DNA of 64,000 nt from Cliona cf. orientalis (taxonomy: Eukaryota > Porifera > Demospongiae > Clionaida > Clionaidae), in contig OZ005690.1 in NCBI GenBank assembly GCA_963930775.1, positions 2,650,225 through 2,714,224 of the forward strand. The letters run 5' to 3'. Below the pieces are notes generated by a model. The model was not told the origin of the DNA. It saw only the letters and a program-made list of their open reading frames with translations, and did no database searches. A program made the translations under genes and the position numbers. Of the stretch, positions 1,241 to 52,442 are shown in pieces. Position 1 is the first letter of the stretch, and each line of letters opens with the position of its first letter.

Positions 1241-1249
1241 TATAATTAT

Positions 1250-8940: not shown

Positions 8941-9194
8941 TCTATATCACCAGCATTAGAAGGTCTATAGAACAAAGTCCCATGTTTTCAAAGTTTACAT
9001 CAAAATAATCACTACTGAATACCAACTATCAGCATTGGGAAAGTAGTCACACTCTGATCATAAAGTACTAAGAATTCAACTTGAAATACATTTTGGGTGC
9101 AGCAGCAATCCGGCTGTAGATCTTGAGATGTGAGCTACGAACTCAATAGCTATACTCCTGAAGTACTATTATTGATTGCAATATAGAGTGAAGA

Positions 9195-10100
9195 ATGGTT
9201 GTGGTTAAAAGTTCACTCCTCTTTCTAGTCATGATAAGCTCAGGTGTTTGCCAATTAGAGCTATACAGTATCTACAACACTAGCTCTACAAAGTTGAGTG
9301 GAGCTGGGTTCTGTCCATCTACTGAGAAGTTGAGGGAGAAGATCAGAGAAGATGTTGCTGCGTTTCTCAACAGCAGTGTAGTGCCTATGCTCACCAAACC
9401 ATGCAGCTGTGGTGGTCCTGGATGGAGAAGAGCTGCTTATCTCAATATGTCTGATCCAACACAGGCTTGCCCACCAGCTTGGGAGCTCATTACTACTCCA
9501 AGAAGATCCTGTGCTAGACCATCTAATGCTGATCACCGGACCTGCTTTTCAGCTATGTTCCCTACTCAAAGCATTCAGTACTCTCAGGTCTGTGGAAGAA
9601 TCATTGGATATCAAGTTGGTGAACCAGGAGCATTTATTCTTGAAAATGCTAATGAAGAGCAAACGATTGATGGTCCATATGTTGACGGAGTGAGTTTGAC
9701 TCATGGAAGTCCGCGACAGCATATTTGGACATTTGCAAATGCATTAGATGAGTATCAATGGCTCTATAACCACAAATGTCCATGCACCCATATCACTGAG
9801 CAGCGTCCAATTATAAGTATACCTTCCTTTATTGGTAATGACTACTTCTGTGAGACTGGTGTGCCACCAGGTCAGCGCTATACTATGTATACTAATGCTT
9901 TCTTCTATGCTGATGATCCCCTGTGGGATGGTCAAGGTTGTGGTCCAACTAGCACATGCTGCACATTCAACAATCCACCATGGTTTTGCAAACAACTACC
10001 TCAGTCAACTAATGCTGATCTGGAAGTCAGACTGTGCTCAGCTGGTGCAGCATCTATTGAAAACACTCCAATAGAACTCATTGAAATTTATGTTAAGTAA
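9195..10100 (+). CDS. Secreted Cys-rich family protein, copy 5 (intact)
   Basis: Intronless frame of 301 residues from ATG 9195, in the context AAGAATGG that paralogs share, to TAA. The signal peptide is MVVVKSSLLFLVMISSGVC. The whole family core is present with no broken motif: CSCGGPGWRRAAYLN, RSCARPSNADHRTC, VCGRIIGYQVGEPGAF, PYVDGVSLTHGSPRQ, HIWTFANALDEY, CPCTHITEQ, DYFCETGVPPG, DPLWDGQGCG, NNPPWFCKQLPQS, EVRLC, ENTPIELIEIYVK. The region between CPCT and DYFC and the short loop before FYADDP vary most in length between copies. This suggests surface loops that diverge while the core is held constant. Secreted; function unknown. Confidence 0.9.
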   Translation: MVVVKSSLLFLVMISSGVCQLELYSIYNTSSTKLSGAGFCPSTEKLREKIREDVAAFLNSSVVPMLTKPCSCGGPGWRRAAYLNMSDPTQACPPAWELITTPRRSCARPSNADHRTCFSAMFPTQSIQYSQVCGRIIGYQVGEPGAFILENANEEQTIDGPYVDGVSLTHGSPRQHIWTFANALDEYQWLYNHKCPCTHITEQRPIISIPSFIGNDYFCETGVPPGQRYTMYTNAFFYADDPLWDGQGCGPTSTCCTFNNPPWFCKQLPQSTNADLEVRLCSAGAASIENTPIELIEIYVK

Positions 10101-10230
10101 ATGCTTAAACGATACTTCCCAAGACTTAGTGATAGGCTTGTACTGTTACAAATATCTCTGTTTTTAGGTTAGTGCATAGGAACAGAACTGATTGAAAATA
10201 CACACACCATATGCCTTATAAATTCTGATA

Positions 10231-10648
10231 CCGTATAGCGGGAATTTTTCGCATGGTGCTAATTTTCGTATATTTCGTATGCTCCATCCTTTATATGAAA
10301 ATAAAATTTGAACATGTTTTTTTTTTTCCCTTTCGTGTGTGACCTTTGACCTATACATGCCACACGCGGTTGCTAGCAGCAGGTGCTAAATGCAAGCTCT
10401 TTGCCTAGGCGTCAAAATGGAGTGACCTTTCTGATCCCAGTGGACTGCTATCAACATCAATTAGCCCTGCTACAATCAAGGAAGCCCAGTGATGCTAGTG
10501 TTACTGCATACTGCATATACTACCAGCTGTGCATGCGCACAATTTCCCGCAGCAAGCATACGAAATTAAAACATACGAAAATTTATTCTAAGGGTGCTTT
10601 GGTCAATCATACGAAAATTAGCACCAACGAAAATTTCCCGCTATACGG
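10231..10648. mobile_element. 418-bp MITE, TA target site
   Basis: The left end reads CCGTATAGCGGGAA followed by a TTTTCG...GGTGCTAATTTTCGTAT arm. The right end is the inverted arm ATACGAAAATTAGCACC...CCCGCTATACGG. Both sides are flanked by TA. The paralogous flank near 15430-15450 continues from the left side to the right side without this element, which gives an empty site. The internal ORFs on both strands are part of the repeat. Confidence 0.8.
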
Positions 10649-10744
10649 TAATTGATTAATTTGGTATAATCTCAGAATTAGCGAATTGGTACACTAACAA
10701 CTATAGAGACAGTAAGGCATCCCTACACCTTCTCAAAATTATGG

Positions 10745-10900
10745 TCTTCAATGACGATCAGCATACTAGGCTTCCTTTGTTGGTAGTGACTATATACGTC
10801 TGTGAGACTGGTGTGCCACCAGGTCAGCATCTTAGCACATAATAGGGTTGTCTATGCTGATGACCCAGTGGGATGGTCAAGGTTGGTGTCCAACCCAGGT
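10745..10900 (+). pseudogene. Relic of the Cys-rich family 3' region
   Basis: The sequence matches the SIPSFVGNDYFCETGVPPGQ and YADDPxWDGQG coding blocks (GTCTGTGAGACTGGTGTGCC, CTATGCTGATGACCCAGTGG). It has an insertion in the Tyr-Phe-Cys codons and stops in every frame. A sister relic lies at 15545-15695 in a duplicated flank. Confidence 0.75.
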
Positions 10901-11439
10901 GGAAAGGATCATGAGTATGCACGAATATTCCGCCAAGAATACACTGTTATTGATTGTGAATTAGGCCAGATCAATTAAATAAATTGTTGCACGGATTCGC
11001 TCGCTCCAATTTTTGGGCAAATAGAAGAAAAAATTTAATTAAGTTGGGTGGAGCTTATGTACAGTAGAGTGGTTTTTGTATTCTATCTTGATTCCCTGGT
11101 CCTAGGTAGTCACATTAGTCTGTCTTAATTAGATTGTGGTCTATAACCACACCCCACTTGATTACTTTTTTTCTTTGGTCGATCGGTCCAATTTTTACCT
11201 CACAATATCCGAGCAACAACAAATTAAATTGGTCTGGCTTTACCGTGCAATACCATGACATTGTGGTAATGCTCCAAACCGTTTCTTTCCAGTTTGATGG
11301 AAAACCAAAAGATCATGGAATCACTTCAACTTTATGCACGTTCAAACCTTCAGCTCCTACAGGCTGCAATGTCCTGGATGAAGATTCGCTACGTACTCAC
11401 AATGACGACACAATCAATCATGACCCGTGCATGGGGCAA

Positions 11440-12290
11440 TGATAGTTCATCTACTATTAGCATACCTAGACATGTAATAATATTACTATGGAATCAAGAA
11501 ACTGGTATAACTTAAGAACTTGGTTTGATACTGCATGATTTAAACACACAACTGACCTAGTACCACAGATAGTACATACAAAAGTGACATGTCATGGGAT
11601 AGAGGATGGCTATATACGTGATCTGCGGCCTTAGAATGATGTCAGACTTATCAGCTACTATGATGTTAACAGGTTTGTGCTCTTTTCTACATCACTTTAG
11701 CCAACCAGATCCATCACAGGAAGCCTCACACACTCACTCCATACACACAGAGCTAATTACAAACAGAGAGATATTTGCCGCCAGAACTGGAGCAACCCCA
11801 AGGCCATGAATATGCTTTAAAATTACTCCATGGTTGGGTCTTACAAGAGTAGAGCATTCTAAATTGCAATACTGAGTGTACTGTGCTTTGCTTGAGAAAG
11901 GCAACCAAGTACACAATAATATTTACAGGGCTTCTTAAGCTTATCCCAGCTTCGAGAAATTTGTATTCTACTGCCATTTTCTAGACTCTGACATGTGCTG
12001 AATTCAAGCAAAAATGGTGAGGTCACTATATGATACAAACAGTGTGCACTCAGCTCTACGGGAGGAGTTAAAAATACTGCTAGTCTATACAGTGACTTAT
12101 GCCTCCTTTAGTATCCTATAAGTTACAAAATGTAAGTAGCCTTTGGAAACAACTCTCAGCACATGTGTGCACGTGTATCTAAGGCACTGGACTTTGCCAG
12201 GATTGAGGTAAGCCTTATCTATACAAGAAGTACATTAAGCAAAGAAAAATATAATAGAGGTATGTTTGTGTCCAAAAGAACTCAGCAGGG
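11440..12290. repeat. Segmental duplication block, copy 1 (others at 15940-16770 and 49970-50420)
   Basis: Long near-identical runs are shared with 15940-16770, including ACTCACTCCATACACACAGA, GATATTTGCCGCCAGAA and CTCCATGGTTGGG. The copy at 50 kb shares the first 400 bp. No coding frame is conserved beyond what duplication alone explains. Confidence 0.8.
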
Positions 12291-12669
12291 TTGTGGCCAT
12301 GGCAGAGGGTAAAATGGAGGGCGGCCACCCTCCTTTCTGACCTCAGTTTTGTTTGATGTGGTTTTTAGAATCAAAATTATAATGCTTTGATCTTTTAACC
12401 ACCATCCCCTATTATGAGCTGGCTACAACACTGAAAAGGAGAAATTTTGCTGATTTTGCCGTCAGCTTTCATTGGTAACATTAATTTGTGGCCTGTGCTA
12501 AGGAAACTTCACTAAAGTGGCAAACAATTCTATAAAGGTAGCTGGGCTTGGTAAATTTGCATCTTTTAAATTTAATGATATTATTATAGTACTGCAATGT
12601 TTGTTACTTCATGTGGATTGTACCCACTATAGCTCACTGATATTATTTTGAGGGTGGTGATATTGCTTA

Positions 12670-13020
12670 GGCCACTCCAATGAGATTCATTGTTTCTCAT
12701 CACCCGCCCGCCTGCTTTTTTTGAGCCGCACTTCTAAACTCATTATTCATTATTTTGGTGCCAGTTCGTTCTACTATTGATTTCGAGCACTATCACCCAC
12801 AGTTACTAGACGACCATTACCTACAATGTTATTCTCGAGCATGCGCAGTAGCAACTTTCCATATTTGGGTTCTTAATGTGCATGCTCGAGAATAAAAGTG
12901 TAGGTAGTGGTCGTCAGATTACTGTCCAAATCTGATAATGAATAATGATAATGACCGCCCGCCCGCATCCTCCAGGAGATACTGAAGTGATGAGAAACAA
13001 GGAATTTCATTGGAGTGGCC
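12670..13020. mobile_element. 351-bp MITE with TTA target duplication (Harbinger-like)
   Basis: It begins GGCCACTCCAATGA and ends TCATTGGAGTGGCC, with the inverted arms continuing as TGTTTCTCATCAC and GTGATGAGAAACA. It is flanked by TTA on both sides (12667-12669, 13021-13023). A 3-bp TTA duplication with GG-starting ends is the usual signature of PIF/Harbinger non-autonomous elements. A second nested inverted pair lies inside (ACGACCATTACCTACA near 12810 and TGTAGGTAGTGGTCGT near 12900), with CTCGAGCATGC arms. Confidence 0.8.
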
Positions 13021-13155
13021 TTACATTAAAATTTTATTATGGTACATACACTATACTGTATTTTGTAATTATTACCCAAATATCACCATCATTGGTATGT
13101 TGTTTTCAACATTACCACAGTAACTACTATGATACATGACATGAGTAGTAACATA

Positions 13156-13574
13156 CCGTAAACTCTGGTTAATAAGCGCATGCGCTTATAGCGGTAAACG
13201 GAACGACAGTATGCGCTTAATAAAGGATATGCGCTTATATGGTACATAACCACGCCCACAAACGTTTGGGCACATGATGGATGTGAGGCCCAACAGCGGT
13301 AGCGCCAGCACTAGCGCTCGATCGATCGAGCGTTTTAGCGTTTACAGCTAGCTGCCGCTCAAGATGACGAGTGCTGGCGATTTGTCTGAAACTCGATCTT
13401 CTTGCATGACAGCTTTATTCGTGGCCACCATTTCTCCCAAGATATCTGGACTCCACATACTATCCAGACGGTCAAGGTCAGGTTCATTGAACACCACGCC
13501 TATTAAGCGCATGCGCTTAATAAACAATAGCTTATGACGAGAAGAGAGCATGCGCTTAATAACCAGAGTTTACG
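13156..13574. mobile_element. 419-bp MITE, TA target site
   Basis: The left end CCGTAAACTCTGGTTA is mirrored by TAACCAGAGTTTACGG at the right end, with subterminal AAGCGCATGCGCTTA repeats on both sides. It is flanked by TA. Ends and TA site are consistent with a Tc1/mariner-type non-autonomous element. A 67-codon minus-strand ORF inside shows no recognised domain. Confidence 0.8.
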
Positions 13575-13580
13575 GTATGT

Positions 13581-13682
13581 ACCTTCTAAATACGTGCATA
13601 TGAAATTACAAAAAAGATCCATTAGCGTAAATATTTGTGCTAATGGATCTTTCTTGTAATTTCACATGCATGTATTTAGAAG
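13581..13682. repeat. 102-bp near-perfect palindrome
   Basis: The arms CCTTCTAAATACGTGCAT...GATCCATTAGC and GCTAATGGATC...ATGCATGTATTTAGAAGG fold back on each other with a short loop. A solo half-copy follows at about 13850-13900 (GATCTTTCTTGTAATTTCAC). It is probably another foldback MITE, directly abutting the element before it. Confidence 0.75.
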
Positions 13683-13979
13683 GCAAGTCTGACACACTTG
13701 GCATTCTACTAGAGGGTAATCTTTGGATAATTTTTCTGCACGTGCTCATAGCAAACAACCATCAATAATGGTGAACACGTAATAATGTACTCAAGAGAGC
13801 TCTTGTCGTTATTGGTATGCTTTTAACATTACCACTACAAATTATGCTAATAGATCTTTCTTGTAATTTCACATGCACATATTTAGAACTTACAATAGCA
13901 TGTAGTCTAAGTCTGAAACACTTGGCAGAAGTCTGAAGTTACCCGACTAGTAGAGTTTAGCAGTGTTGCACAGAAAATC

Positions 13980-14906
13980 ATGATAGCAATTTTCTTCATA
14001 CTAGTTGTAGCTAGCTGTGTTGCTTGTCAACAGCTTCCACTAAACTATAGTGCCAGGTCAGTGGCAGGAGCTGGAGCAGGAATGTGTCCAGATACACAAG
14101 GTCTGCGGGATAGCATCAAGCAAAATATCCATTCACTCATCAACAACAGCGTGCTCCCTGCACTTATGGCTCAAAATCAAACACAGACTGTACTTGTAAT
14201 TGGCCTAGGCCATGGAGCCTGTGGCTGTGGTGGTCTTGGATGGAGAAGAGCTGCCTATCTCAATATGTCTGATCCAACACAGACTTGCCCACCAGCTTGG
14301 GAGCTCATTACTACTCCAAGAAGATCATGTGCTAGACCATCTAATGCTGATCACCGGACCTGTTATTCAGCTATGTTCCCTACTCAAAGCATTCAGTACT
14401 TTCAGGTCTGTGGAAGAATCATTGGATATCAAGTTGGTGAACCAGGAGCATTTATTCTTGAAAACCTTGATGAAGAGCAAACGATTGATGATCCATATGT
14501 TGATGGTATGAGTTTGACTCATGGAAGTCCACGACAGCATATTTGGACATTTGCAAATGCATTAGATGAGTATCCATGGAACTATAACCACAAATGCCCA
14601 TGCACCAATGTCAATGAGCAGCGTCCTATCAGCATACCTTCCTTTGTTAGTAATGACTACTTCTGTGAGACTGGTGTGCCACCAGGTCAGCAGTTTAACA
14701 ATGAGATCTTCTATGCCGATGATCCCCTGTGGGATGGTCAAGGTTGTGGTCCAACTAGCACATGCTGCACATTCAACAATCCACCATGGTTTTGCAAACA
14801 ACTACCTCAGTCAACTAATGCTGATCTGGAAGTCAGACTCTGCTCAGCTAACCAAGCAGCCATTGAAAATACTCCAATAGAACTGATCGAGATTTATGTC
14901 AAGTAA
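13980..14906 (+). CDS. Secreted Cys-rich family protein, copy 6 with divergent N-terminus
   Basis: Intronless, 308 residues, ATG 13980 to TAA. The signal peptide MIAIFFILVVASCVAC differs from all other copies. The first 80 mature residues (LPLNYSARSVAGAGAGMC, SLINNSVLPALM) share only the overall pattern (GAGxC, N-glycosylated SLINNSVLP) with them. From CGCGGLGWRRAAYLN onwards the DNA and protein are nearly identical to the copies at 4912 and 9195. The sharp change of similarity inside one exon suggests gene conversion of the 3' two thirds, or that this is an older subtype whose core was homogenised. The family core is complete, including PPWFCKQLPQS and IEIYVK. Secreted; function unknown. Confidence 0.9.
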   Translation: MIAIFFILVVASCVACQQLPLNYSARSVAGAGAGMCPDTQGLRDSIKQNIHSLINNSVLPALMAQNQTQTVLVIGLGHGACGCGGLGWRRAAYLNMSDPTQTCPPAWELITTPRRSCARPSNADHRTCYSAMFPTQSIQYFQVCGRIIGYQVGEPGAFILENLDEEQTIDDPYVDGMSLTHGSPRQHIWTFANALDEYPWNYNHKCPCTNVNEQRPISIPSFVSNDYFCETGVPPGQQFNNEIFYADDPLWDGQGCGPTSTCCTFNNPPWFCKQLPQSTNADLEVRLCSANQAAIENTPIELIEIYVK

Positions 14907-18083: not shown

Positions 18084-18159
18084 ACGTCATGGCTAAACCT
18101 AGAAAGCTGATTGGATGTGACGTCAATAGAGTGATGAACCTTCGCGAAGGCCATAAATA
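18084..18159 (+). promoter_or_regulatory. Stress-type promoter of glycine-zipper gene 1: two CRE-like sites, heat-shock element, TATA
   Basis: ACGTCAT at 18084-18090 and a perfect palindromic TGACGTCA at 18118-18125 are CRE/ATF-like. GAACCTTCGCGAAGG has GAA 18136-18138, TTC 18141-18143 and GAA 18146-18148, three correctly phased pentamers of the canonical heat-shock element. A TATA-like ATAAATA follows at 18153-18159. The same order recurs before the other array genes. Binding is not shown here; the match to known HSF and CREB/ATF motifs is established knowledge. Confidence 0.75.
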
Positions 18160-18318
18160 CGTAAAACGCCACCCAGCTCTCTGCTGCCGTCTAAATTAGA
18201 CTTCAGTTCGTATTGATCCTTCTGGAGATTGTCTTGGCCTTCAAAGCTTAGAGACATCAAGTCACCTATTTCAACTGCTATTCTGCCTCACTTGATATAC
18301 TCAACAGTGTTTGACACA

Positions 18319-18634
18319 ATGGGCTATGTAAGTTGGTTATAATATACATAATGGCATGCACTTTGACCATGGCCCACAAAATGATAATTGCCGAGAAATG
18401 GTACGTTCCTCGTTATTTGATGTATGTCGGTAGAACTAGATACTTAACCAACACAAGTAAGTCACTTTATCCCTTGTATTATAGCCACCTCCTGAGCCAA
18501 GTCCCCGTCCTAGTCCTCCTAGAGTGCACGTTGCCATTGGAGCGCTTACTGGTGTCATTGCCGGACTATGCCTAGCTGGACCCCTTGGTGCCATCGCTGG
18601 CGGAGCCATTGGTGGATTTGCAGCTTGGATCTAA
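18319..18634 (+). CDS. Glycine-zipper microprotein 1 (two exons, 52 residues)
   Basis: Exon 1 codes only Met-Gly-Tyr (18319-18327) and is cut by a GTAAGT donor. The intron is 157 bp and ends TTATAG. Exon 2 (18485-18634) codes a Pro-rich stretch (PPPEPSPRPSPPR) and then a 32-residue Gly/Ala-rich hydrophobic part with GALTGVIAGLCLAGPLGAIA and GGAIGGFAAWI, then TAA. The small-residue spacing (GxxxGxxxG) and the GP turn suggest two short membrane helices in a hairpin. It lacks the Lys-rich tail of its paralogs. The start is set by the shared MGX-GTAAGT context in all five genes. No cleavable signal peptide. The function is unknown; membrane insertion is likely. Confidence 0.8.
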
Positions 18635-19350
18635 CTGAACTCCACTCTCCTCCAGCCTAGTCACATGCAACCTCCGTCGCTTTTTAATTGTAGCAAAATT
18701 TACACATTTACTTTTTGTGCCTTTAATCATGATTATAGTAGTTATAATGCTTATTGTTGGAGGATAATGATGTATTATTATTAACTACCTATCAGCAATA
18801 TCGAACTGCACAGCTTGGCGCTACCCAAAAGAGAGTCTGATGCGTGCACATGGAGATTATTAAAATGGACTCCAAGCATGTTAGCCATTAATAATTGTTA
18901 CTTAGTATTAGAGAGTTCATCAACTCTAATTGATGGTAAGAGATATGTTCATGCAGTTTATTCGGGAAAGTGGGAGGGGTACGGTGAACGTAGAGTTCTA
19001 ATTACATGAATAATTATTGAGGGATGTACCATTCAACGCGTAAACAACCCTCCGGTATATTCCCCGGGATCGTCCCCAAAACGGAATGGGACCTGCATTC
19101 ATTTCAGAAACTCAGATCGAGATCCCATACAAGCATGGAATCGAGTATACAACAAAATCTATGGCCTGGTTGAAAAATAAGTATGAGAATGAATGATAGT
19201 ATGGTATGGTAAGCAGGCAAACATAATGTTCCAAAATCAACCAAGCTACTAGTGGGTACATCCTTATAACCAATCAGATTAGCAAATGCACACAGAAAAA
19301 AATAGCATGATTTGCATCCAAGTCCAAAAGTAACATTATCATTCATTACT
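18635..19350. other. Spacer between array genes 1 and 2
   Basis: AT-rich 3' flank, then the array-unit upstream module from about 19030 (GTAAACAACCCTCCGG, CCCCGGGATCG) with the ACCAATCAGATTAGCAAAT box at about 19269. No gene is seen. Confidence 0.55.
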
Positions 19351-19358
19351 AAAAGCAC

Positions 19359-19448
19359 ACGTCATCACTAATCCCAGAAATTATGTGACGTAAACAGAGT
19401 GTATACGTGGAATGAATGTTCGGGAAGGCTGTAGATTATATGAAATAC
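19359..19448 (+). promoter_or_regulatory. Stress-type promoter of glycine-zipper gene 2
   Basis: ACGTCAT (19359-19365) and TGACGTA (19386-19392) are CRE/ATF-like sites 27 bp apart. GAATGTTCGGGAAGG carries GAA 19414-19416, TTC 19419-19421 and GAA 19424-19426 with exact heat-shock-element spacing. A TTATATGAAAT box follows at about 19437. Downstream, the leader CACCCAGCTCTCGGCTGTGG is shared with gene 4 and nearly with gene 1. Confidence 0.75.
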
Positions 19449-19595
19449 CACCCAGCTCTCGGCTGTGGTCTAAAGTAGATTTATTTTGTAAAAAAAGGTG
19501 AAGAAATCGCCTTACCATCTCAACGACAAGCGATCTACAGCTGGTGCTATTCTATCTTACTACTCTAACCTCAATACTGACTTTGAGTTCTAACT

Positions 19596-19905
19596 ATGGG
19601 CAATGTAAGTTAACATAGTCACATACAATTTAGCCCACGGAATGCATAATAATTCAATTAGGTTAGCCAGGCTACTATTTTTCTAATTCATTGGGCAAAT
19701 TGGATGTTTAGGGGGAAAGCTGTATTTTATTACTGTATTGTAGGGCACCCCTTCAGAACCGTCTACCCCTCCAAATGGTGCACGGATTGCTTTAGGAGCT
19801 CTAGCCGGCATCATCACTGGACTCTGTCTGGCAGGACCGTATGGTGCGGTAGTCGGTGGAGCTATTGGGGCAGGAGTGGAGGCTTGGAAGAAAGCATGGT
19901 ACTAA
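19596..19905 (+). CDS. Glycine-zipper microprotein 2 (two exons, 56 residues)
   Basis: Exon 1 19596-19604 codes Met-Gly-Asn; the intron is 19605-19743 (GTAAGT...TTGTAG); exon 2 is 19744-19905, ending TAA. Exon 2 begins with a short polar Pro/Ser segment (GTPSEPSTPPNGAR) and runs into IALGALAGIITGLCLAGPYG and AVVGGAIGAGVEAWKKAWY. The block GLCLAGPYGA(V/I)VGGA(I/L)GAG is nearly invariant across genes 2-5, with basic residues before and after, as expected of a membrane hairpin with positively charged flanks. No family member is known to me. Glycine-zipper membrane proteins in general can oligomerise in bilayers, but no activity is claimed here. Confidence 0.85.
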
Positions 19906-20379
19906 CTAACAGCAATTAAGAGCACATCAGCACATGATTTCACTTCTATACACTATGGCTGCTGCATATTATATAGAATACGAAATATACCCCTTCATAT
20001 TGTATGAGTTGTGTGCATTAATACTAATAATGCTGAATAATATGTTTGTGCAACGGGAGTGCATGGGGAAATTCAATACTACAAGATATCTTAACATAGG
20101 TGGAATAATCAATAATACTTACTGATTTTTTTTGCCAGAAAAATAATATACATCATAATAATAATAGTCGCAAGGTTATACTATGCCGGAAGTAAAATAA
20201 ATGACTCTCCATTGGACAGGTACTTTCCATGGGATCGTCCCCAAAATAAAATCGGACCATTTCAGAAACTCAAGATCCCATCATACAAGCATGAAATGGA
20301 TTATACAACGAAAGATTTTATTGATATTGCATGCAGAAAAGCACAGAAATTTAAGATTGGGAATATGGGAATCAGTCTA
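19906..20379. other. Spacer between array genes 2 and 3
   Basis: AT-rich sequence and a diverged array-unit upstream module (about 20206-20310: CCATGGGATCGTCCCC, AACTCAAGATCCCAT, ATGAAATGGATTATACAACG). The small ORFs here are repeat-derived. Confidence 0.5.
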
Positions 20380-20460
20380 GTGACGAGTGTAACGTAAGCA
20401 CCATCACTGGAGTACACACATTATACTGAACATTGGGAAGGTAGCACGTAATATTTAAAA
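20380..20460 (+). promoter_or_regulatory. Degenerate stress-type promoter of glycine-zipper gene 3
   Basis: GTGACGAG (20380) and TAACGTAA (20390) are weak CRE-like matches. GAACATTGGGAAGG (20428-20441) aligns with the heat-shock elements of genes 2 and 4 but lacks one base, so the third GAA is out of phase. A TATTTAAA box lies at about 20452. This copy may have lost heat responsiveness while keeping the layout. Confidence 0.5.
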
Positions 20461-20620
20461 CATCACCGAGCTACCTCCTGTGATTAGTTTTTTGGTCCTT
20501 GATAACGGCCAAAGAAGCGTTTCGCCACTACAAACAGCAGATATCGTTCAAGCTGTCCACAGCTAGTGTATCTACCTCACCACTCAATCCTCCACAAGTT
20601 ATTAAATTTTGACCATTAAA

Positions 20621-20962
20621 ATGGGCTGCGTAAGTTGTGTATGTACAAGTTAAGCTGTCAATGGTAACATGGACTTATTTAGAAAGCCCACCTGTTTCTA
20701 CAGAAGTTCTAACATAATACCGCATAATATGATACTTAGGGCCTATTCTTAAATTAAATTCTTAGGTTTATTGTATGAATTGGTGTTATATCTTGTCCTT
20801 TAGTCTCCAGGAGAACCTTGTCCCAAGCCAAATGGCAGTAGAATACGAATTGCTCTAGGAGCCATTACCGGCATTATCACTGGACTCTGCCTGGCTGGTC
20901 CATATGGTGCAGTTGTTGGTGGAGCCCTTGGGGCTGGAGTGGAGGCTTGCAAAAAGACTTGA
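20621..20962 (+). CDS. Glycine-zipper microprotein 3 (two exons, 55 residues)
   Basis: Exon 1 20621-20629 codes Met-Gly-Cys; the intron is 20630-20803 (GTAAGT...CTTTAG); exon 2 is 20804-20962, ending TGA. The polar lead SPGEPCPKPNGSRIR is followed by IALGAITGIITGLCLAGPYG and AVVGGALGAGVEACKKT. MGCSPGE fits the N-myristoylation rule with Cys3 as a possible palmitoylation site, but only some paralogs fit that rule. The Trp common before the Lys-rich tail is Cys here. Same gene plan as its neighbours; weaker promoter motifs. Confidence 0.85.
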
Positions 20963-21810
20963 TTAGTACCAGTTACTGTATGCATACCCCTGAACTACTA
21001 CATGTATGTATGCATACTGACTGCTATACACTATAGCACTGCTCTAATACTTATTTAATAGTACAGGGATAGCTAGCTATATTATATTAACTGCACATAT
21101 TATTATAATCTGCCTGAGGCTTATAATACCATACAGTTTCTTAATTAACTATCAGGCAATATTTTTTTTTACTAATTATCATAGCTTTTCATATGCAGAA
21201 TAATATCTAATCAATGGGAACAGCATGAATTCATGACAGGGATATAATTATAGGAGCATACCCATTAATAACACCTATTTTCCTAATAAAGAAGCTACAA
21301 AAGGGAGTACTGGATAAGTCAAGATAAGGAGTCAGTCATCAATTTGACCAATCAGATTTAAACATGCCATGGCAATTGTTAAAGTTGACTAGCAAGTACG
21401 TATGTTAGACACTAATCAGAGAATTCACCAATGGCAAGAGTATGCTCAGTTTAGTTAGGGTGAGAGATGGCGCAAGTAGAGCTCTATTACATGAATAATT
21501 GAGGGTGTACCATTCAAGGCGTAAACAATCCTCCGGTATTTTCCCCGGGATCGCCCCAAAAAACAGAATTGGACCATTTCAGAAACTCAGAGATCCCATA
21601 CCAGCATGGAATCGAGTATACAACAAAAGTCTGTACGGCATTGCATGAGAATGATAGTATGGTATGGTAAGTAGGCAAAATATATGTTCTAAGATCAACC
21701 AAGTCACTATTAGGCATATACATCTCTGCAACCAATCAGATTAGAAAATGCACACTGAAAAAGAAGCATGACTTGCATCCATTAAAGTACTAACCAAGTC
21801 ATTACTAAAA
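20963..21810. other. Spacer between array genes 3 and 4
   Basis: The 3' flank is strongly alike to that of gene 4 (TACTGTATGCATAC, CTACTACATG, GACTGCTATACA, GATAGCTAGCTAT), so genes 3 and 4 share a recent duplication including the 3' end. The array-unit upstream module is at about 21510-21740. No gene is seen. Confidence 0.55.
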
Positions 21811-21813
21811 TCA

Positions 21814-21903
21814 CACGTCATCACTAATGCCAGAAATTATGACGTAGAACAAGTGTGTATTTATGTGCAATGAATGTTCGGGAAGGCCGTAGATTATATA
21901 AAA
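21814..21903 (+). promoter_or_regulatory. Stress-type promoter of glycine-zipper gene 4
   Basis: CACGTCAT (21814-21821) and ATGACGTA (21839-21846) are followed by GAATGTTCGGGAAGG, with GAA 21872-21874, TTC 21877-21879 and GAA 21882-21884 in exact heat-shock-element phase. A TATATAAA box lies at about 21895-21902, then the shared leader CACCACCCAGCTCTCGGC. It is almost identical to the promoter of gene 2. Confidence 0.75.
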
Positions 21904-22049
21904 CACCACCCAGCTCTCGGCTGTGGTCTAAAGTAGGCTTAATAAAAGACGAAATTGCCGTCTTGACAAGAAGCGATCTACAGCTGGCACTATTCTATCT
22001 TGCTACTCCAACCTCAATATCTACTTGAGTTCTAACAGATTTCGACAAT

Positions 22050-22413
22050 ATGGGCGGTGTAAGTTGTTTACGAGCAAAGGTGTCAACAGTAGCATGGAAT
22101 TGTTTTAGAAAGGCCGCCAAATTTTCTTCTTATACCAATAGAGTACTGCATATGATACTTGGAGTCTGTAATAGATCCATTCTTTGGCCTTCTATTTATT
22201 GTGTTGAATACTACAAAGAAAACAACATGTATATTGTTTTTATCTTTTGTCATTTAGTCCACAGACCCTCCTACCAGGCCACCTGGTCCCAGAATAAGAG
22301 TTACTCTAGGAGCAGTGGGTGGCATAATCGTTGGACTTTGCCTGGCTGGTCCATATGGTGCAATTGTTGGTGGAGCCCTTGGGGCTGGAGTGGAGGCTTA
22401 CAAAAAGACTTGA
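22050..22413 (+). CDS. Glycine-zipper microprotein 4 (two exons, 54 residues)
   Basis: Exon 1 22050-22058 codes Met-Gly-Gly; the intron is 22059-22257 (GTAAGT...ATTTAG); exon 2 is 22258-22413, ending TGA. The lead STDPPTRPPGPRIR is followed by VTLGAVGGIIVGLCLAGPYG and AIVGGALGAGVEAYKKT. A long unspliced frame also runs from this ATG through the intron, but in exon 2 it is out of phase with the conserved protein. The spliced product is supported by four paralogs with the same junctions. Probably a small membrane hairpin protein; function unknown. Confidence 0.85.
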
Positions 22414-24833: not shown

Positions 24834-27800
24834 TCAAGCAACTTTCTTCCACATTAGTACTCTTTCTTCCATGGCTCTAAATGCTGCCTCAAATGTCCTC
24901 ACAGTGCGATCAACATCCTGCATCAATGTTAGACATGCACATGATAATTATAGTAACATACACAATGCTAAGAATAGCACAATATTAACCTGAGGTTCTC
25001 TAAGCTGAGATGCTGGTTTTGAGTCCACATCTGTGCCTAAAATGTCAATAATGCTCATTTGCTTCAGGTGGCTTGCAACATCAATCAGACGAGTACCATC
25101 CTGTACGAGTAATAAAAAAAATCATGATTTTTAATGTATACAATGCTTTGCTAACAGAAGAAGAAAGGACTGTTGGCTAGCAATGATAAAATCATCAATA
25201 TTAGGTATCAGGCATAAACGAATGTAGTAAATCAGACAGTGAATGTTTTCAGCTTACATCCAGCTCAGTCTTTGCGTTGTGATGCAGCAAGTTTTGTACA
25301 AGTTCCACGCTCCCATTTTTTGCGGCAAAAAATATTGCAGTCCACCCCGTCCCCTGTGAAGAAACAACAAAATTAATACAACATGATGACAGTATACACA
25401 ATAATTATTATTATACTTAGAGGACTACTCCAATTTTTCAATATACCTTATGAGTAGCATTGACGTCTGCACCACCTTCCAATAGAGCATCCATTTCTTC
25501 CACATAGCCTTTATTTGTCGCCACCATCAATGCTGTCAGACCATCCTAAAAAAGAATTACCTAAAATTGCATAATCATTACTCTCATACATTACAATACC
25601 CTGTTGGTGATGTCAAGACTGAATTTAGTTTCTGCGTCTTCAGGCTGCTTTGCTGTAGCCAGCTGCTTAATGACACCAGATTGTCTCTTCAAAGTCGCAA
25701 TATGAAGAACTGTATCACCTTCTCTCTAATTATTGTGGTTAGCATATTATTATTATGATAAACAAGGGTGTATCTGGAGAGGGCCTTGCCCCCAGGCTCC
25801 CTGATCGATCTTTTCAATGCATGGATGAGAAAAGAGGGGGCTTTCAGCAAATTTTATAACACTGAAAATTGGACTGGAGCCTGGGAATGAGGCCATTATG
25901 GTAAACCCATGTCACTTTGCTCTTACCGTGGTTATGGTTAAGTCTGCTCCTCTTTCAACCAGTTCTTTTACCACTTCACCATGACCATACTTAGCAGCCA
26001 ACATCACTGAGGTCCAGTTATACTATAAAAGATGTTTAGATATGTATGCATGAGTGGTCATAATAATTAGTGAAATGTGTTTTGTTGTGTCAGGTACATA
26101 CCTCCAATATTACGTCATTCAAATGGCCACCACGATCTGCAATAATCTTCAATAATTTCAGATTGCCTTCAGTGCTTGCCCGGCTCAAAGGATTCCACCC
26201 AGTCTGTGTGCACAGTAAAGTATAGAATGTTCTTATTCTAGATCTAGTTGACCGTACTTTCTCTGCAAGGTGGATACTGGCACCTTTGTGGATAAGAAAC
26301 AGGGCAACAGCTGTCCGTTTTTCATAGATAGATATCGACAGAGAAGATAAACCATTCTGTAGGAATATTTAATCAGTTGTTGTCAAGAAATAAAGTTCTG
26401 TGTGAGAGTGACATTGGTACCACTAATTGTGCATCTTACAACATTTTGATGATCGAGTACAGCACCATGTTCCAGAAGCTTCTTAACGACCTTCAGGTGA
26501 CCTTTACGACTTGCAATCATCAATGAAGACCATTCCATAGACTACATATATACGTGGATTAGAACAACCTCTATTAAAGTTGACTGCCCCCTCTAAGCAT
26601 ACCTTTGATGTTATGTTGGGATTGGCCCCTTTATTCAGAAGAAGGTCTACAATGTGGATGTTACCTCGATCGGAAGCCCACATCAGTGAGGTCCATCCAT
26701 GCTACGAACAAAATGAATAAAATGGAAATAATAAAAAAAATGATAATTGAATAGCTACAGATATGATATTACACCAAGTAAGTTTGTATAGATACCTCAT
26801 CTGCTTCTCTTGCATCGATAGGTAAGGCAGTCTCTCTCTCTTTTTGAAGCATGCTCTTGATAGTCTTGAGATCATCATTTTTGACAGCCTCAATAAGATC
26901 CTACATGAATATCAAAATGAATATCTTACACAGATGATCCTAGTCAGACTAATTTCAGCTCACTGTTCTGAATAAGACAGCCCTGAGCCCTTTAGTAATG
27001 CCCCGAAGAGTTTCCTGAAAATGCAAAAAAAATTAATAGGGGATGATTATAGTACCCAAAGTGAAACTAACGGCAACTTTGTGTCGAGCACTGTCTGATC
27101 TGACTTCCGGTTGTTTCCTCAGCTCTGGTGGCAGCAATTCTTCACATACTTTGTCATAGCCTTTCATCTTGGCAATATCATAAGGAGTTTCACTCCCCTG
27201 CATTAATCATAATACTAGCATTTTCCCAGGAGAATCTGAGCATGGGCTAGATTTAACCTAAAAAATGTATTATAGCACTTCAGGATGTTAAAATCTCACG
27301 CAGTGAGCGGTAATCAAATATTAACCATCCTCTCTCTCCCCAACTATCCACTCATATCAGCCCCTTGGAGATAATAATAGATTTACCATATCCTTTTGAT
27401 TAGGATCAGCTCCGTAAGCCACTAAGATAGAAGTGGCTACATCATGGCCGTTCTCAGCGGCAAAGTATAAAGATGTTTTCCCTCTTACCTGTGTAAGTCA
27501 TAAAGAATAAATCTGCGTAGCACTTCTATGTTTACAACATATCTACCGCTTCTTTCAAATCGATAGTTACACCACGATCCAGCAAGAGAAGAATTGTCAG
27601 CTCATGTCCGAGTTCAGAAGCTAACATTAAGGGAGTCTTTCCATCCTGCAAGTGCACGCATGCATGGTGGTGAATATGAAAGTTCTGGTTATAATAATGG
27701 TAGGGTCATTACATGATTTTTAGCATTGAGATCGGCTCCTTGATCAAGCATTATTCTCACCAGATCCTCCTTCCCTTTTGCTGCCACAAAAAACAGTGCA

Positions 27801-30800
27801 GTCTCTCCAGTCACCTACCATTGAATAAAACCATGTATATGTATATATGCATACTATACTTGTTTTTGACTGATGATGAGGTTTGTTCAATGAACCATGA
27901 TAAACAGGAACCTAAGGCATTATGATATTGATGCCAGTAGACATGTTATGTGGTATACTTTGTATGATGTTGATAACATGCAGTACAGTACCGCAGCTGT
28001 TATCAAAAAGTCCACGCCATTGGTCGGCGTAATCACATGACTTAGCTTGCGCGCGCCTCTTATATGGGCTGGCCGGCCTAGCGCCTTTAGTACAGTATAC
28101 TATACTAGTGCAGACCCAGGTTTAATAAGGAAGAATGGCAGAAAAAGAAGACTCGAGGAGGACGTGTGAGCATACTGGGTGGGCTGAGGAAGAGAGGCAG
28201 AAAAATAATTGAGGGGACGTATGAGTGTACTAGGATGGAGGGCTACTCGGTTAAGGAAGAAAGGCAAAAAAAATGAAAAAGAAGAATCAAGGGATGTGTG
28301 AAGGTACTGGGTGGGCTACTAGGTTAAGGAAGAGAGGCAAAAACAGAGAAAAGATTTTAGGGGGACATGTGAGGGTACTGGGCAGGCTACTAGGTTAAGG
28401 AAGAGTAGCAAAAAGAAGGTTCAAGAGGGGAATATGTGAGTATACTGGGACCGTGGGCTACTGGTTCAGGAAGAGAGGCAAAAATGAAAAAAAAGGTCAA
28501 GGGACATATGAGGATTCGCGGGGAATGTGTGAGTGTACTGGGACAGTGGGCTACTAGATTAAGGAAGAGAGGCAAAAAAAATGAAAAAAAATCTAGGGAC
28601 GTGTGAGGGTACTGGGTGGGCTACTAGGTTAAGGAAGAGAGGCAAAAAAGAGAGAAGATTCAAGGGGGACGTGTGGGAGTACTGGGTGGGCCACTAGGTT
28701 AAGGAAGAGAGGCAAAAAAAGAGAGAAGACGTATGAGGGTACTGGGTGGGCTACTAGATTAAGGAAGAGAAGCAAAAAATGAAAAAAAAGAAGAATCGAG
28801 GGACGTGCGAGAGTACTGTGCGGGCTACTAGGTTAAGGAAGAGAGGCAAAACAGAGAGAAGATTTGATGGGGATGTGTGAGGGTACTGGGCGGGCTACTA
28901 GGTTAAGGAAGAGTGGCAAAGAAGATTTGAGAGGGGACGTGTGAGGGTACTGGGACCATGGGCTACTAGGTTATGGAAGAGAGGCAAAAAAGGGAAGAAG
29001 GAGTAGCACCCGCGTAGTAATAGAGATGTATGGTGTAGCACCCGCGTAGCAATAGAGATGTACTGTGTAGCACCCACGTAGCAATAGAGATGTATGGTGC
29101 AGCACTGTGTAGTAATAGATATGTATTGCGTAGCACTAGCTACTGTGTAGTAATAGAGATGTATGGTGTAGCACCCGCGTAGCAATAGAGATGTATGATG
29201 TAGCACTGTGTAGCAATAATATTATATAGACTCTGTCTTTGTAGGGTATGATGTATCACGTGACCCAACCAATCAGATCCTTACTTTGATAGGTAGTCAT
29301 ATGACCCTATTTGGTGGCTGTTGACCAATAGCGTTGATTCTTTGATAGGAGCTGCGGGATACCTCAACATGCAAGCATTCCTTTGTGGTAAGGCATCTGA
29401 AACACATATGCAGCACCCCAACTTTTCAAGGCTATACCTATGCATGTACATGTATACATATGACTAGGTTTGCCTGAATGGGCAGTGGGATGGTTACCCC
29501 CTTAGAGTTTGGATTGGTAGTACCATAATAATTTATGTGTAGTGTGCATCTTCTACTTACGTGTTTAGCAACATTGAGATCAATATCTCCTGTCAAGAGA
29601 GAATTGACCTTCTCCCAAATCTCATAATAAGCAGCAGTCAGGAGCAACAACTGCAATTGCAGAAACAGGAATAAAATGGAACTACATTATTTCTGTACTC
29701 TATATAAGTACATACTGAGTTACTAATAAGCACATCATTGATGTAGATCTTCTCAATATGATGGCGTTCCATTAACTCCTTTCCAGCTTCAGCACAAAAT
29801 ATTGATATCAAATCGTAATCATACTCCTCTGGTACTATCCACTCTATTTCCACGCAACCCGTCCTCACGTCCCACGTCTGACAACGAATGCACTCCGAGA
29901 GTTTCATATTTGACCAGACGTCTTCTCTGATATGATCCAAATTGGATAGTGTGGTTTTAGCTGGGTCGATATGCTGCTTGATTTTCACGACTTTGTGATG
30001 CGCTGGAATCTCCTTTACCTTATAAAATCGTCTCCCATGTTCCGCAAACTTTGCTATAGTTGTAGTATCCTTAAATGTCTTTATATCATTAGCATATTCA
30101 TCCATTCTACTCACTAGGACCGGGCTGCATCTGTTGCTTTCAATGACAAACTTTAGCACTTCGTACTCGAAATAATTCCAACAGCACTCATTCAATTGGA
30201 GAAATAGCTCTTTAAGAGATTTTGGCTTTTCTGCATTATACGAAGATAGTTTCTTGATGTACTCCATATTCGTATCTTTGCTTAATAGGCGAGGTGGTAT
30301 TCCTCTCAGTCTAGCACTGATAGTTTCTACAGTCTTCTTTTCATTTGTCAACTCCTCTTCAGTTTCGGCTTGTAGTATGCTGAAGCGAATCTCAAAGTCA
30401 TCTATTTGTGCTTCTATATCTGTGATAGCAACGCACACACATAATTTACTACTAGGAGAGAAGAGGCTACATGCAGCTAGTAAACTATAAAATTACTAAG
30501 TCATTAACCATAGAACTGCTATGTACAAGTATCAGATTCTGTTACATATATAAAAGCTTATTAGATTCTTAGGTGTAATGATACAATATTAGTGCCTGCA
30601 TGGCCTGTTCATCTACTGTAGACACAACTATTATTGCTAAATGACCACTGCTCATACATGCTCTATACAACCATTGTGTTAGCACTATGGCATGCTTTGT
30701 ATTAGGTTTGATCACAGCTGCATAATATATACGTACGTGGTTACATAGAGAGGAAGTTACCAGATGGGCACCTGCTGAAGATCACTGAGATACTATCATA

Positions 30801-31832
30801 ATATACTATAGGTATAGTATAATATTGTACCACTCTTACCATTTGTGGGCTCAAAGAAGGTTGGAGTAGGAGGAAGAGAGCTCATTGATACAGATGACCC
30901 TCGTCTAGGTAGTGCTTCTAGTAGAACATTCCGCGTCGGCTCATGTTCAGCTTGCTCAAACCATGCCTCTATCAATCGCTGATGGCATCCAATTCCCACA
31001 TACTCAGAGAGGCAATTGAGTTTAGCCTCGTCCACTCCCAGCTTTCTGCCCAATTCTTTTAAGTTCCCTACGTCCACCACCACAATCAAATTAACAGCCT
31101 CGGGAATTGTAAACTCTGCATTTGAAGTATTGAATATGGTTAGTACAAAACTTCAATGAACGCACAAAACCCTCCCAGCATTATATAGCTGAACTATAAT
31201 TATATTGGGCGTCACCCACAAGTCTATAAAAATCATTGTGATAACTACTCCATAATAATGCATCTAGCTACTGTTGTATCACCCACATGTAACTTACTTT
31301 GGTCATGATCACTGACTTCAACTGAAGACAGAAGTGAATGGTCTAATGACCAGGGGCTACTTATGGATGGTGATACCAAGGAATCCTGCTTTAGATCGAT
31401 GCATTTATCTCGAATTTCTCTTGCCATTCTACGCAAGTTCACTGCTGGCTTTTCCAATGTTGCTGCTAGATGCTCCCAAGATGTTAGCTTCTCCTTACTA
31501 ACACATTTTTCAAGTAAATTCTGCTTTCGTTCACATAATCGGACACGTTGATCCTCAATTTCGTCCAACTCGTATGGTTCAAGACCGAATTGTGAGCCAA
31601 GAACCCGGAGATTACATGTCAGTTCGCTGAAATAGTCACAAATTGCAGTTTCATTTCTGCTCCAAACTATCTGACTAGCTTTCTTACTCTCATCATGACA
31701 TCCAGCAGATTTTTGCTCAGTTAAATTTGGCAAAAGATCACTGGGCAGAACACAGACTGTTCTATCACTTTCACTCTGACTAGACTGAGTAGCTAGTAAA
31801 AGTTCACGTTTAGCTAACATGCTCAAGTTCAT
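24834..31832 (-). CDS. Death-ankyrin protein, paralog A (many exons)
   Basis: Exon 1 ends at 31298; it contains a death-like domain (TCNLRVLGSQFGLEPYELDE, TSWEHLAATLEKPAVNL). The start is uncertain: ATG 31832 is the first in frame, but an upstream exon may be missing. Exon 2 (31115-30840) is a second death-like domain (LKELGRKLG, QRLIEAWFEQ). Exon 3 (30419-29716) is a 235-residue helical domain opening with a coiled coil (DIEAQIDDFE), then LNECCWNYFEYEVLKFVIE, KTFKDTTTIAKF and an EIEWIVPEE block. After 29650-29561 come about 12 ankyrin-repeat exons from 27817 to about 24990, one repeat each (for example GADLNAKN, GWTSLMWASDRGN), and a C-terminal helix with TGA 24836-24834. Probable cytosolic adaptor or sensor in death-domain signalling; no NACHT, kinase or caspase domain is seen. 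Confidence 0.8.
28110..28995. repeat. Minisatellite in an intron of gene A
   Basis: About a dozen imperfect units of 65-85 bp, each with GGGCTACTAGGTTAAGGAAG, AGAGGCAAAAA, a purine run and GTGTGAGGGTACTGGG. It fills much of the 1.7-kb intron between the exons at 29561 and 27817. Paralogs B and C have no such array in the corresponding intron. Confidence 0.85.
29003..29215. repeat. About 32-bp tandem repeat in the same intron
   Basis: Six to seven units of GTAGCACCCGCGTAGCAATA followed by GAGATGTATGGT, some with CACTGTGTAG instead of CACCCGCGTAG. It directly follows the longer minisatellite. The minus-strand ORF through it is repeat-derived. Confidence 0.85.
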
Positions 31833-51884: not shown

Positions 51885-51978
51885 ACGTCACTGATTAATC
51901 TCGAAAGATGATTGGATGTGACGTCAACCGACGACATGCCTGTGCCGAACCTTCGAGATGCCGTAAACACATAATAAC
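51885..51978 (+). promoter_or_regulatory. Stress-type promoter of glycine-zipper gene 5
   Basis: ACGTCA (51885-51890) and TGACGTCA (51919-51926) are spaced 34 bp apart exactly as in gene 1, in the shared context GATTGGATGTGACGTCAA. GAACCTTCGAGATGC (51947-51961) keeps GAA and TTC of the heat-shock element in phase, but the third unit is GAT. A weak ATAATAA lies at about 51971. Confidence 0.65.
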
Positions 51979-52112
51979 ACCCACTTCTCTCGGATAGTTA
52001 GAATTTGGCCTCGATCTAAGCGCCGAGAAGAGATCGTATAGTGTTGCAAAGCACAAGTGACGCCATCTACTACTAAGTTTCATCAATACATCGGGTTTTG
52101 ACAACAAGCACA

Positions 52113-52442
52113 ATGGGTGGCGTAAGTTAGTAAGAAACAAAAGTACACACAATTAACAGTACGCTGTACAAGATAGTCTCATAGTATTATGCTAGCTATA
52201 GCTGCATACATGTACATGGAATTGTTAGCAAATAAATTCATGGCATGTTTATGCATATTCCTTGGTATTTTTTCTATATGCAGTCAAACGGTGGTGAAAA
52301 AATAAATGGTTATAAATTTAGAACCCGAGTTACCCTCGGAGCTCTGGCAGGTATAATCACTGGACTATGCCTGGCTGGTCCTTATGGAGCCATCGTTGGC
52401 GGGGCTATAGGGGCAGGCGTGGAGGCCTGGAACAAGACTTAG
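52113..52442 (+). CDS. Glycine-zipper microprotein 5, distant copy (two exons, 55 residues)
   Basis: Exon 1 52113-52121 codes Met-Gly-Gly; the intron is 52122-52283 (GTAAGT...ATGCAG); exon 2 is 52284-52442, ending TAG. The lead SNGGEKINGYKFRTR is more basic than in other copies. The core VTLGALAGIITGLCLAGPYG and AIVGGAIGAGVEAWNKT is intact. Lying 30 kb from the main array and behind the 50-kb copy of the segmental block, it probably arose by duplication of the gene 1 region, whose promoter it resembles most. MGGSNGG fits the N-myristoylation rule. Confidence 0.85.

What the first reader, a model, noticed from the sequence alone, without database searches (positions are those of the whole stretch)
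18084..22413. Tandem array of glycine-zipper microprotein genes, apparently undescribed
Four consecutive two-exon genes code 52-56-residue proteins made of a short polar/Pro lead, a basic patch and a nearly invariant Gly-rich hydrophobic hairpin (GLCLAGPYGA(V/I)VGG), with a fifth copy at 52113. Splice junctions, reading frames and protein length are conserved while introns and spacers diverge, which is strong evidence that these easily missed genes are real. Glycine-zipper membrane peptides can oligomerise; no family with this layout is known to me.
Basis: partly seen in the sequence, partly recalled or inferred. Interest (0 to 1): 0.88.

Follow-up and report, generated by a model that had tools for sequence, protein, structure and literature searches.

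The report
Sponge glycine-zipper microprotein genes, likely heat-induced
A sponge genome carries five related, intron-split genes for tiny glycine-rich, probably membrane-bound proteins, most with promoters that look like those of heat-shock genes; the genes look real and no description of the family was found, but expression and function are not yet shown.

Summary
Four tandem genes (18319-22413) and a fifth (52113-52442) each have a 9-nt coding exon 1 (MGX), a phase-0 intron of 139-199 nt and an exon 2, giving 52-56 aa. In 4 of 5, exon 2 has no Met and follows an in-frame TAG, so splicing is needed. The hydrophobic core is constrained (pooled pN/pS 0.21), the lead hardly (0.87). Inferred leaders hold no ATG (0 in 731 nt, 7.8 expected). 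Eighteen homologues of unnamed origin share the core; 18 of 18 have Q (a CAG acceptor read through) where exon 2 would begin. The assembly matches Cliona cf. orientalis.

New here: 3 of 5 promoters carry a perfect heat-shock element 178-183 nt before the ATG, a fourth one mismatch, the fifth a broken one; two DNAJB-type genes of the same genome have it at a similar place. The best non-family match to g1 is an AIG1-type GTPase tail. No Pfam cut-off is reached by the 2 window proteins and 4 homologues scanned. Best reading: HSF-regulated membrane microproteins. Expression, topology and function are unproven.

The parts
18319..18327 (+). g1 exon 1 (coding MGY)
18485..18634 (+). g1 exon 2 with stop
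   Evidence: follows in-frame TAG, no Met
19596..19604 (+). g2 exon 1 (MGN)
19744..19905 (+). g2 exon 2 with stop
   Evidence: follows in-frame TAG, no Met
20621..20629 (+). g3 exon 1 (MGC)
20804..20962 (+). g3 exon 2 with stop
   Evidence: follows in-frame TAG, no Met
22050..22058 (+). g4 exon 1 (MGG)
22258..22413 (+). g4 exon 2 with stop
   Evidence: follows in-frame TAG, no Met
52113..52121 (+). g5 exon 1 (MGG)
52284..52442 (+). g5 exon 2 with stop
   Evidence: no Met; frame open 16 codons into the intron
18136..18148 (+). g1 perfect heat-shock element GAANNTTCNNGAA
19414..19426 (+). g2 perfect heat-shock element
21872..21884 (+). g4 perfect heat-shock element
51947..51959 (+). g5 heat-shock element with one mismatch
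20428..20441 (+). g3 broken heat-shock element (one base fewer than g2/g4)
   Evidence: alignment; not among the matches
18118..18125 (+). g1 CRE TGACGTCA
19386..19393 (+). g2 CRE-like TGACGTAA
21840..21847 (+). g4 CRE-like TGACGTAG
51919..51926 (+). g5 CRE TGACGTCA
18170..18318 (+). g1 inferred leader from the conserved CACC block to the ATG, free of ATG
   Evidence: start inferred, not mapped
19449..19595 (+). g2 inferred leader, ATG-free
20464..20620 (+). g3 inferred leader, ATG-free
21907..22049 (+). g4 inferred leader, ATG-free
51978..52112 (+). g5 inferred leader, ATG-free

Best explanation
A family of real, individually promoted, spliced microprotein genes in a sponge, most of them switched on by heat-shock factor (with a CREB/ATF-type site upstream). 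Each makes a 52-56 aa protein with a short variable polar N-terminus, a basic patch and a membrane segment of about 30 residues with two GxxxGxxxG zippers on either side of an invariant Gly-Pro, plus an invariant Cys. Most likely mechanism: under heat or proteotoxic stress the protein inserts into an intracellular membrane (by eye it has no signal peptide), packs through its zippers into homo- or hetero-oligomers, and alters or stabilises that membrane. Shown: gene structure, selection on the core, homologues, heat-shock elements. Inferred: heat induction, membrane insertion, oligomerisation, effect on the membrane.
For: Gene structure; exon 2 lacks Met in 5 of 5 and follows an in-frame TAG in 4 of 5; Q 17-21 residues before the core, where exon 2 would begin, in 18 of 18 outside homologues; core pN/pS 0.21 pooled over 10 non-independent pairs; 0 ATG in 731 nt of five leaders against 7.8 expected, and 0 of 2000 shuffle sets without ATG. 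Regulation: perfect heat-shock elements at 18136, 19414, 21872 (178-183 nt before the ATG) and a one-mismatch copy at 51947 (166 nt); 7 perfect in the window against 0.53 expected, 0 of 100 shuffles reaching 7; the element (0.74), the CACC block (0.78) and exon 1 with its donor (0.84) are the best conserved 15-column stretches upstream; two DNAJB-type genes of the same genome have perfect elements 120-173 nt before their ATG; 0 perfect elements in 35,194 bases of nine other own-genome loci; part of an HSF DNA-binding domain is found in the genome, 45.6 bits, over the cut-off, with one stop codon inside the matched stretch, perhaps an intron edge. Membrane segment: mean Kyte-Doolittle 1.47-1.79 over residues 19-49 and two GxxxGxxxG in 5 of 5; both arm motifs, written by me from this family, in 23 of 23 members; Cys, Gly and Pro invariant in 23.
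Against: No transcript, protein or heat-response data were seen. The g3 element is broken. g2 and g4 promoters are recent relatives (0.87 identity), so the three perfect elements are about two independent observations, and the other 4 of the 7 window elements lie in duplicated DNA (26470 and 42185; 0.82 ungapped identity of the surroundings) and in the arms of an inverted repeat (49402, 49677). A CRE-HSE pair is not enriched genome-wide: 9 matches, 3 of them these genes, against 16 for the reversed control. One of six DnaJ_C loci (L030) has a perfect element away from any start that I could name, so such sites also occur outside promoters. AlphaFold2 gives a single low-confidence helix. The lead evolves almost neutrally (0.87), odd for a targeting signal. 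HSP70 and HSP90 promoters could not be tested.
Confidence: 0.55

Rival explanations
1. Detached anchors: the microproteins copy the C-terminal glycine-zipper membrane anchor of AIG1/GIMAP-type GTPases and act by packing against those tails in the membrane, tuning the GTPases during stress.
For: The best non-family match to g1 (and to g2) in the genome is the C-terminus of a 400-codon AIG1-type frame (L006 = L038): 48% over 46 residues with a Pro-rich lead, E 2.4e-4 for one genome with g1, 43% and E 0.0265 with g2; profile probability 93.5 over 29 columns; Smith-Waterman score above all 2000 shuffles for 5 of 5 genes. Three other AIG1-type frames, L018, L019, L021, found with the C19orf12 profile and not with the microproteins, also end in glycine zippers.
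Against: Direct BLASTP aligns only about 20 residues (E 2e-4). The shuffle test does not discriminate: the C19orf12 stretch also beats all 2000 shuffles for 5 of 5 genes, with lower scores. The invariant Cys is absent from the four tails. Zippers of this kind arise often. Another weak match of g1, L039 (E 0.251), is a glycine-rich 165-codon frame in which I saw no GTPase motif (not scanned). L006 shows no perfect heat-shock element in its 3,120 bases.
Confidence: 0.15
2. Stress-induced cell-death or pore peptides: oligomers permeabilise mitochondria or the plasma membrane of damaged cells.
For: Two zippers in one short hydrophobic peptide; weak resemblance to class IIc bacteriocins (E 0.0053 for g2, below cut-off); death-domain-like blocks lie between g4 and g5 (one frame at E 0.0075, below cut-off).
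Against: No Pfam cut-off reached; the neighbourhood is no proof of function.
Confidence: 0.12
3. Truncated relatives of C19orf12 that act like it at ER and mitochondrial membranes.
For: Same GPxG...GGAIG register as the sponge's own C19orf12 (L017): profile probability 83.2 over 23 columns; Smith-Waterman above all 2000 shuffles for 5 of 5 genes; weak Pfam matches (E 0.025 for g2).
Against: 14.8 and 8.5 bits (g2, g1) against a cut-off of 30; only the zipper aligns; BLASTP of g2 E 0.35; a C19orf12 gene over the cut-off exists elsewhere (46.5 bits).
Confidence: 0.12
4. Non-functional duplicates or a repeat mistaken for genes.
For: Small size; g3-g4 core dN/dS 0.72; no expression data.
Against: All five frames, splice sites and ATG-free leaders intact; core constrained; 18 outside homologues.
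Confidence: 0.03

Closest known systems
C19orf12 / Nazo family (PF20721)
   Same: Glycine-zipper membrane segment with GPxG...GGAIG; C19orf12 is placed in the clan of glycine-zipper membrane domains and is found in mitochondria and ER (PMC4470416, passages).
   Different: C19orf12 is about 150 aa with soluble parts; these are 52-56 aa, have an invariant Cys and score below the cut-off.
AIG1/GIMAP-type GTPase C-terminal anchors in the same genome (L006, L018, L019, L021)
   Same: Glycine-zipper tail; L006 also has a Pro-rich, basic lead.
   Different: No GTPase domain in the microproteins; no Cys in the tails' zippers.
Pfam glycine-zipper families PF13441 and PF13488 (mostly bacterial envelope proteins, recalled)
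   Same: Zipper spacing.
   Different: 6.9-12.6 bits against cut-offs 28.9 and 25 for g1 and g2; spliced eukaryotic genes.
Pmp3/RCI2 (PF01679, recalled) stress-induced small hydrophobic proteins
   Same: Works-like comparison only: about 55 aa, hydrophobic, stress-induced (recalled).
   Different: Not among the Pfam hits of g1 and g2 at E<=10.
DNAJB-type and HSPE1 heat-shock genes of the same genome
   Same: Heat-shock element 120-173 nt (two DNAJB-type genes, perfect) or 154 nt (HSPE1, one mismatch, putative start) before the ATG.
   Different: They encode conserved chaperones.

Membership tests
C19orf12 (PF20721) | Whole-protein score above the curated cut-off of 30 bits | tested here: not met
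   14.8 bits (g2), 8.5 bits (g1); g3-g5 not scanned; 4 homologues 10.8-15.0 bits or no hit
C19orf12 (PF20721) | Soluble region of some 70 residues after the zipper | tested here: not met
   Proteins end 6-11 residues after the second zipper
Gly-zipper Pfam domains PF13441 / PF13488 | Curated cut-off (28.9 / 25 bits) | tested here: not met
   Best 12.6 / 12.3 bits in g2
Bacteriocin_IIc (PF10439) | Curated cut-off 27.1 bits | tested here: not met
   17.1 bits in g2, 11.5 in g1; the match covers the zipper part
Pmp3/RCI2 (PF01679, accession recalled) | Match to the family profile | tested here: not met
   Absent from hits at E<=10 for g1 and g2; HMMER filters drop most weak matches
AIG1/GIMAP GTPases (PF04548) | GTPase domain | tested here: not met
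   Microproteins consist of lead and zipper only; no AIG1 hit
HSF-regulated genes | At least three alternating nGAAn units in the proximal promoter | tested here: met
   Met in 3 of 5; one mismatch in g5, broken in g3
HSF-regulated genes | HSF-dependent induction by heat | not testable with these tools
   No expression data held
Glycine-zipper membrane proteins (works like) | GxxxGxxxG in a hydrophobic segment | tested here: met
   Two per protein in 5 of 5
N-myristoylated proteins | MG start plus the PROSITE-type context G-{EDRKHPFYW}-x2-[STAGCN]-{P} (recalled) | tested here: not met
   By eye on the sequences: g3 and g5 fit, g1, g2, g4 do not (2 of 5), so not a family feature

The most novel reading that the evidence does not exclude
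An animal heat-shock regulon contains a lineage-specific class of membrane microproteins that are free-standing copies of the glycine-zipper anchor of AIG1/GIMAP-type GTPases; made on stress, they co-assemble with those anchors through the zippers, with the invariant Cys as a redox or acylation switch, and so couple the heat-shock response to innate-immune-type GTPases at membranes.
Probability: 0.1. Interest if true: 0.78.

Novelty: new variant of a known kind. Interest (0 to 1): 0.5.

Why it matters
Cliona orientalis is a reef-eroding sponge studied under warming (PMC5974012, title and start of abstract in a listing). A set of short genes with heat-shock promoters would add a membrane arm to a response usually discussed as chaperones, would give a candidate marker of sponge heat stress, and shows how spliced 50-residue proteins with a three-residue first exon can escape annotation (whether the Ensembl annotation has them was not checked).

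Tried and rejected
Chance frames or repeat: rejected (selection, leaders, splice logic, homologues). Translation starting inside the intron: impossible in g1-g4 (in-frame TAG directly before exon 2); in g5 the frame is open for 16 codons with 3 ATGs, so not excluded there, but 18 of 18 homologues keep Q at the junction with varied residues before it. Membership in C19orf12, Gly-zipper and bacteriocin families: cut-offs not met. Conserved N-myristoylation: 2 of 5 fit a recalled motif. Structure: low confidence, so no fold search was made. Collections: 47 and 124 pattern stretches in viral contigs and 254 in genome contigs, none a relative. HSP20 as control: no match in this genome. HSP70 and HSP90 as controls: not completed. 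Rfam at gathering thresholds: no match in the window. Other matches of the CRE-HSE pattern (L008-L010, L014-L016) were only read for open frames; I recognised no heat-shock gene. L031 and L032 were fetched and not analysed.

Papers: only PMC12639293 (passages) and PMC4470416 (passages) were opened; all others were seen as listings with starts of abstracts. PMC4144087 (host gene expression in Cliona varians) and PMC6896943 (heat in an Antarctic sponge), listed, were not opened and might hold relevant data.

Rows left out: P0003 (the window's own g5 exon 2) was left out of alignments and counts of outside homologues; P0016-P0021 (E 3.7e-4 and worse) too. In one search the non-selected loci were L006, L007, L017-L022 and L024; pattern-selected loci, window copies and L023 (inside L024) were not counted.
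Full report
What is there. Reading the window and splicing the exons gives five genes on the + strand with one plan: ATG-GG(C/T)-NNN, donor GTAAGTT, a 139-199 nt phase-0 intron, and an exon 2 coding 49-53 residues. The proteins are 52, 56, 55, 54 and 55 aa. In g1-g4 exon 2 is preceded directly by an in-frame TAG, and in all five it holds no Met, so a spliced upstream exon must supply the start in g1-g4. In g5 the frame runs 16 codons into the intron with 3 ATGs, so an intronic start is not excluded by sequence alone there.

Are they genes? Nei-Gojobori counts over the 10 pairs give pooled pN/pS 0.21 in the 32-residue core, 0.43 for the whole protein and 0.87 for the lead. Many dS values exceed 1 and the pairs are not independent, so single ratios are rough; the recent pair g3-g4 stands at 0.72 in the core. 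Of 43 variable core positions 28 are third positions. The leaders from the conserved CACC block to the ATG (135-157 nt) hold no ATG: 0 in 731 nt, against 7.8 expected from first-order shuffles (0 of 2000 sets without ATG) and 31 in the 1000 nt just upstream of the blocks. The leader starts are inferred, not mapped.

Genome. The held assembly has 216,785,154 bases in 149 contigs; contig lengths of C1, C2, C4, C8 and C9 (37.50, 14.80, 11.51, 9.97, 9.89 Mb) match chromosomes 1, 2, 4, 8 and 9 of Cliona cf. orientalis odCliOrie1.1 (PMC12639293, passages). The paper reports 217.17 Mb in 307 scaffolds, so the held copy is a little smaller; the identity is inferred from lengths. No other copy of the family was found in it (counts are lower bounds).

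Relatives. Three protein searches give 18 homologues besides the window's own P0003, at E 1.2e-28 to 3.8e-15 in the last one; the next proteins are bacterial-looking zippers at 3.7e-4 and worse. None of the 18 has a Pfam domain or a name in the listing. Their organisms are not given; that they are sponges is inference. All 18 have a Q 17-21 residues before the core (lead lengths differ), where exon 2 would begin, and where the frame extends further the residues before it (F, L, C, I) look like a translated pyrimidine tract: a CAG acceptor read through. In a tree of these short sequences g1 joins P0014 (ultrafast bootstrap 98) and g4 joins P0013 (95), so some subfamilies seem older than the split of the sources. 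Invariant over 23 sequences: A20, G23, I25, G27, C29, L30, G32, P33, G39, G43, G45 of g5's exon-2 peptide.

Promoters. A heat-shock element GAANNTTCNNGAA is perfect at 18136, 19414 and 21872, has one mismatch at 51947, and is broken in g3 through a missing base. A TGACGT site ends 12-26 nt before it in four of five. The element (0.74), the CACC block (0.78) and exon 1 with its donor (0.84) are the best conserved 15-column stretches of the upstream alignment. The window holds 7 perfect elements against 0.53 expected; the other 4 are a duplicated stretch (26470 and 42185) and the two arms of an inverted repeat (49402 and 49677). As control, two DNAJB-type genes on C4 have perfect elements 120 nt (L025) and 123-173 nt (L026) before their ATG; HSPE1 has a one-mismatch copy 154 nt before its putative start. 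Of all 6 DnaJ_C matches, 3 loci hold a perfect element; in the third (L030) it lies in an open frame away from any start that I could name. Nine other own-genome loci (35,194 bases) hold none. Against: the joint CRE-HSE pattern occurs 9 times in the genome, 3 of them here, and its reversed control 16 times, so the pair is not an enriched module. HSP70 and HSP90 searches did not complete.

Nature of the protein. Two GxxxGxxxG zippers flank Gly-Pro in all five. No Pfam cut-off is reached by g1, g2 and the four homologues scanned. AlphaFold2 on a 19-sequence alignment returns one helix 11-50 at mean pLDDT 65.6, pTM 0.33; hairpin or bent single helix remains open. With the microproteins as queries, matches elsewhere in the genome are the tail of an AIG1-type frame (L006 = L038; E 0.0265 with g2, 2.4e-4 with g1) and three weaker ones: L007 (E 0.602, a 36-codon frame without a zipper), L039 (E 0.251, a glycine-rich 165-codon frame) and L040 (E 1.01; the locus frame that I read shows no zipper). 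With the C19orf12 profile as query, the genome gives a true C19orf12 (L017, 46.5 bits), three AIG1-type frames with zipper tails (L018, L019, L021) and one match broken by stops (L020). g1 against the L006 tail is 48% over 46 residues, profile probability 93.5, yet direct BLASTP aligns only 20 residues, the C19orf12 stretch passes the same shuffle test, and the Cys is not shared. Common descent is possible, not shown.

Verdict. The best-supported reading is a heat-shock-factor-regulated family of membrane microproteins; heat induction and any membrane effect are inferences. In print: searches for glycine zipper with sponge and heat shock (2 papers), sponge with microprotein and glycine (29, 20 listed), Porifera with tandem duplication and related terms (4), GIMAP with glycine zipper (0), and microprotein-related terms with heat shock factor (332, 12 listed), as well as sponge heat-stress terms (6, 9, and 22 with 20 listed), showed no description of this family by title or start of abstract. 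None of these papers was opened, and the library lacks most subscription journals and preprints.

Noticed in passing
window 3-14906 (+): Tandem array of frames (six of 160-329 codons listed) sharing CGGPGWRRAAYLNMSDPTQTCPPAWEL-like and, in most, CGRIIGYQ...HIWTFANA stretches; the two frames scanned have no Pfam match at E<=0.01.
   Followed up: partly
window 29638-31904, 44465-46875, 59653-63433 (-): Three repeated blocks with an IEELE-rich segment and a death-domain-like segment (PF00531 E 0.0075 in one frame, below cut-off); two blocks lie between g4 and g5.
   Followed up: partly
window 49160-49942: Long imperfect inverted repeat (six arm pairs, 72-97% complementary) with perfect heat-shock-element matches in both arms at 49402 and 49677: a possible mobile source of such elements.
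   Followed up: partly
window 26350-26602 and 42065-42317: Duplicated stretch (0.82 ungapped identity) with an identical heat-shock-element match in each copy.
   Followed up: no
L006, L018, L019, L021: AIG1-type GTPase frames ending in glycine-zipper tails; a search for papers with GIMAP and glycine zipper found 0.
   Followed up: partly
L025 and L026 (C4 11.387 and 11.395 Mb): Two neighbouring DNAJB-type genes about 7.6 kb apart with perfect heat-shock elements.
   Followed up: yes
L023 1272-1460: HSPE1 seems, by eye, to have a first coding exon of the ATG alone before a phase-0 intron, similar to the three-codon first exon of the microproteins.
   Followed up: no
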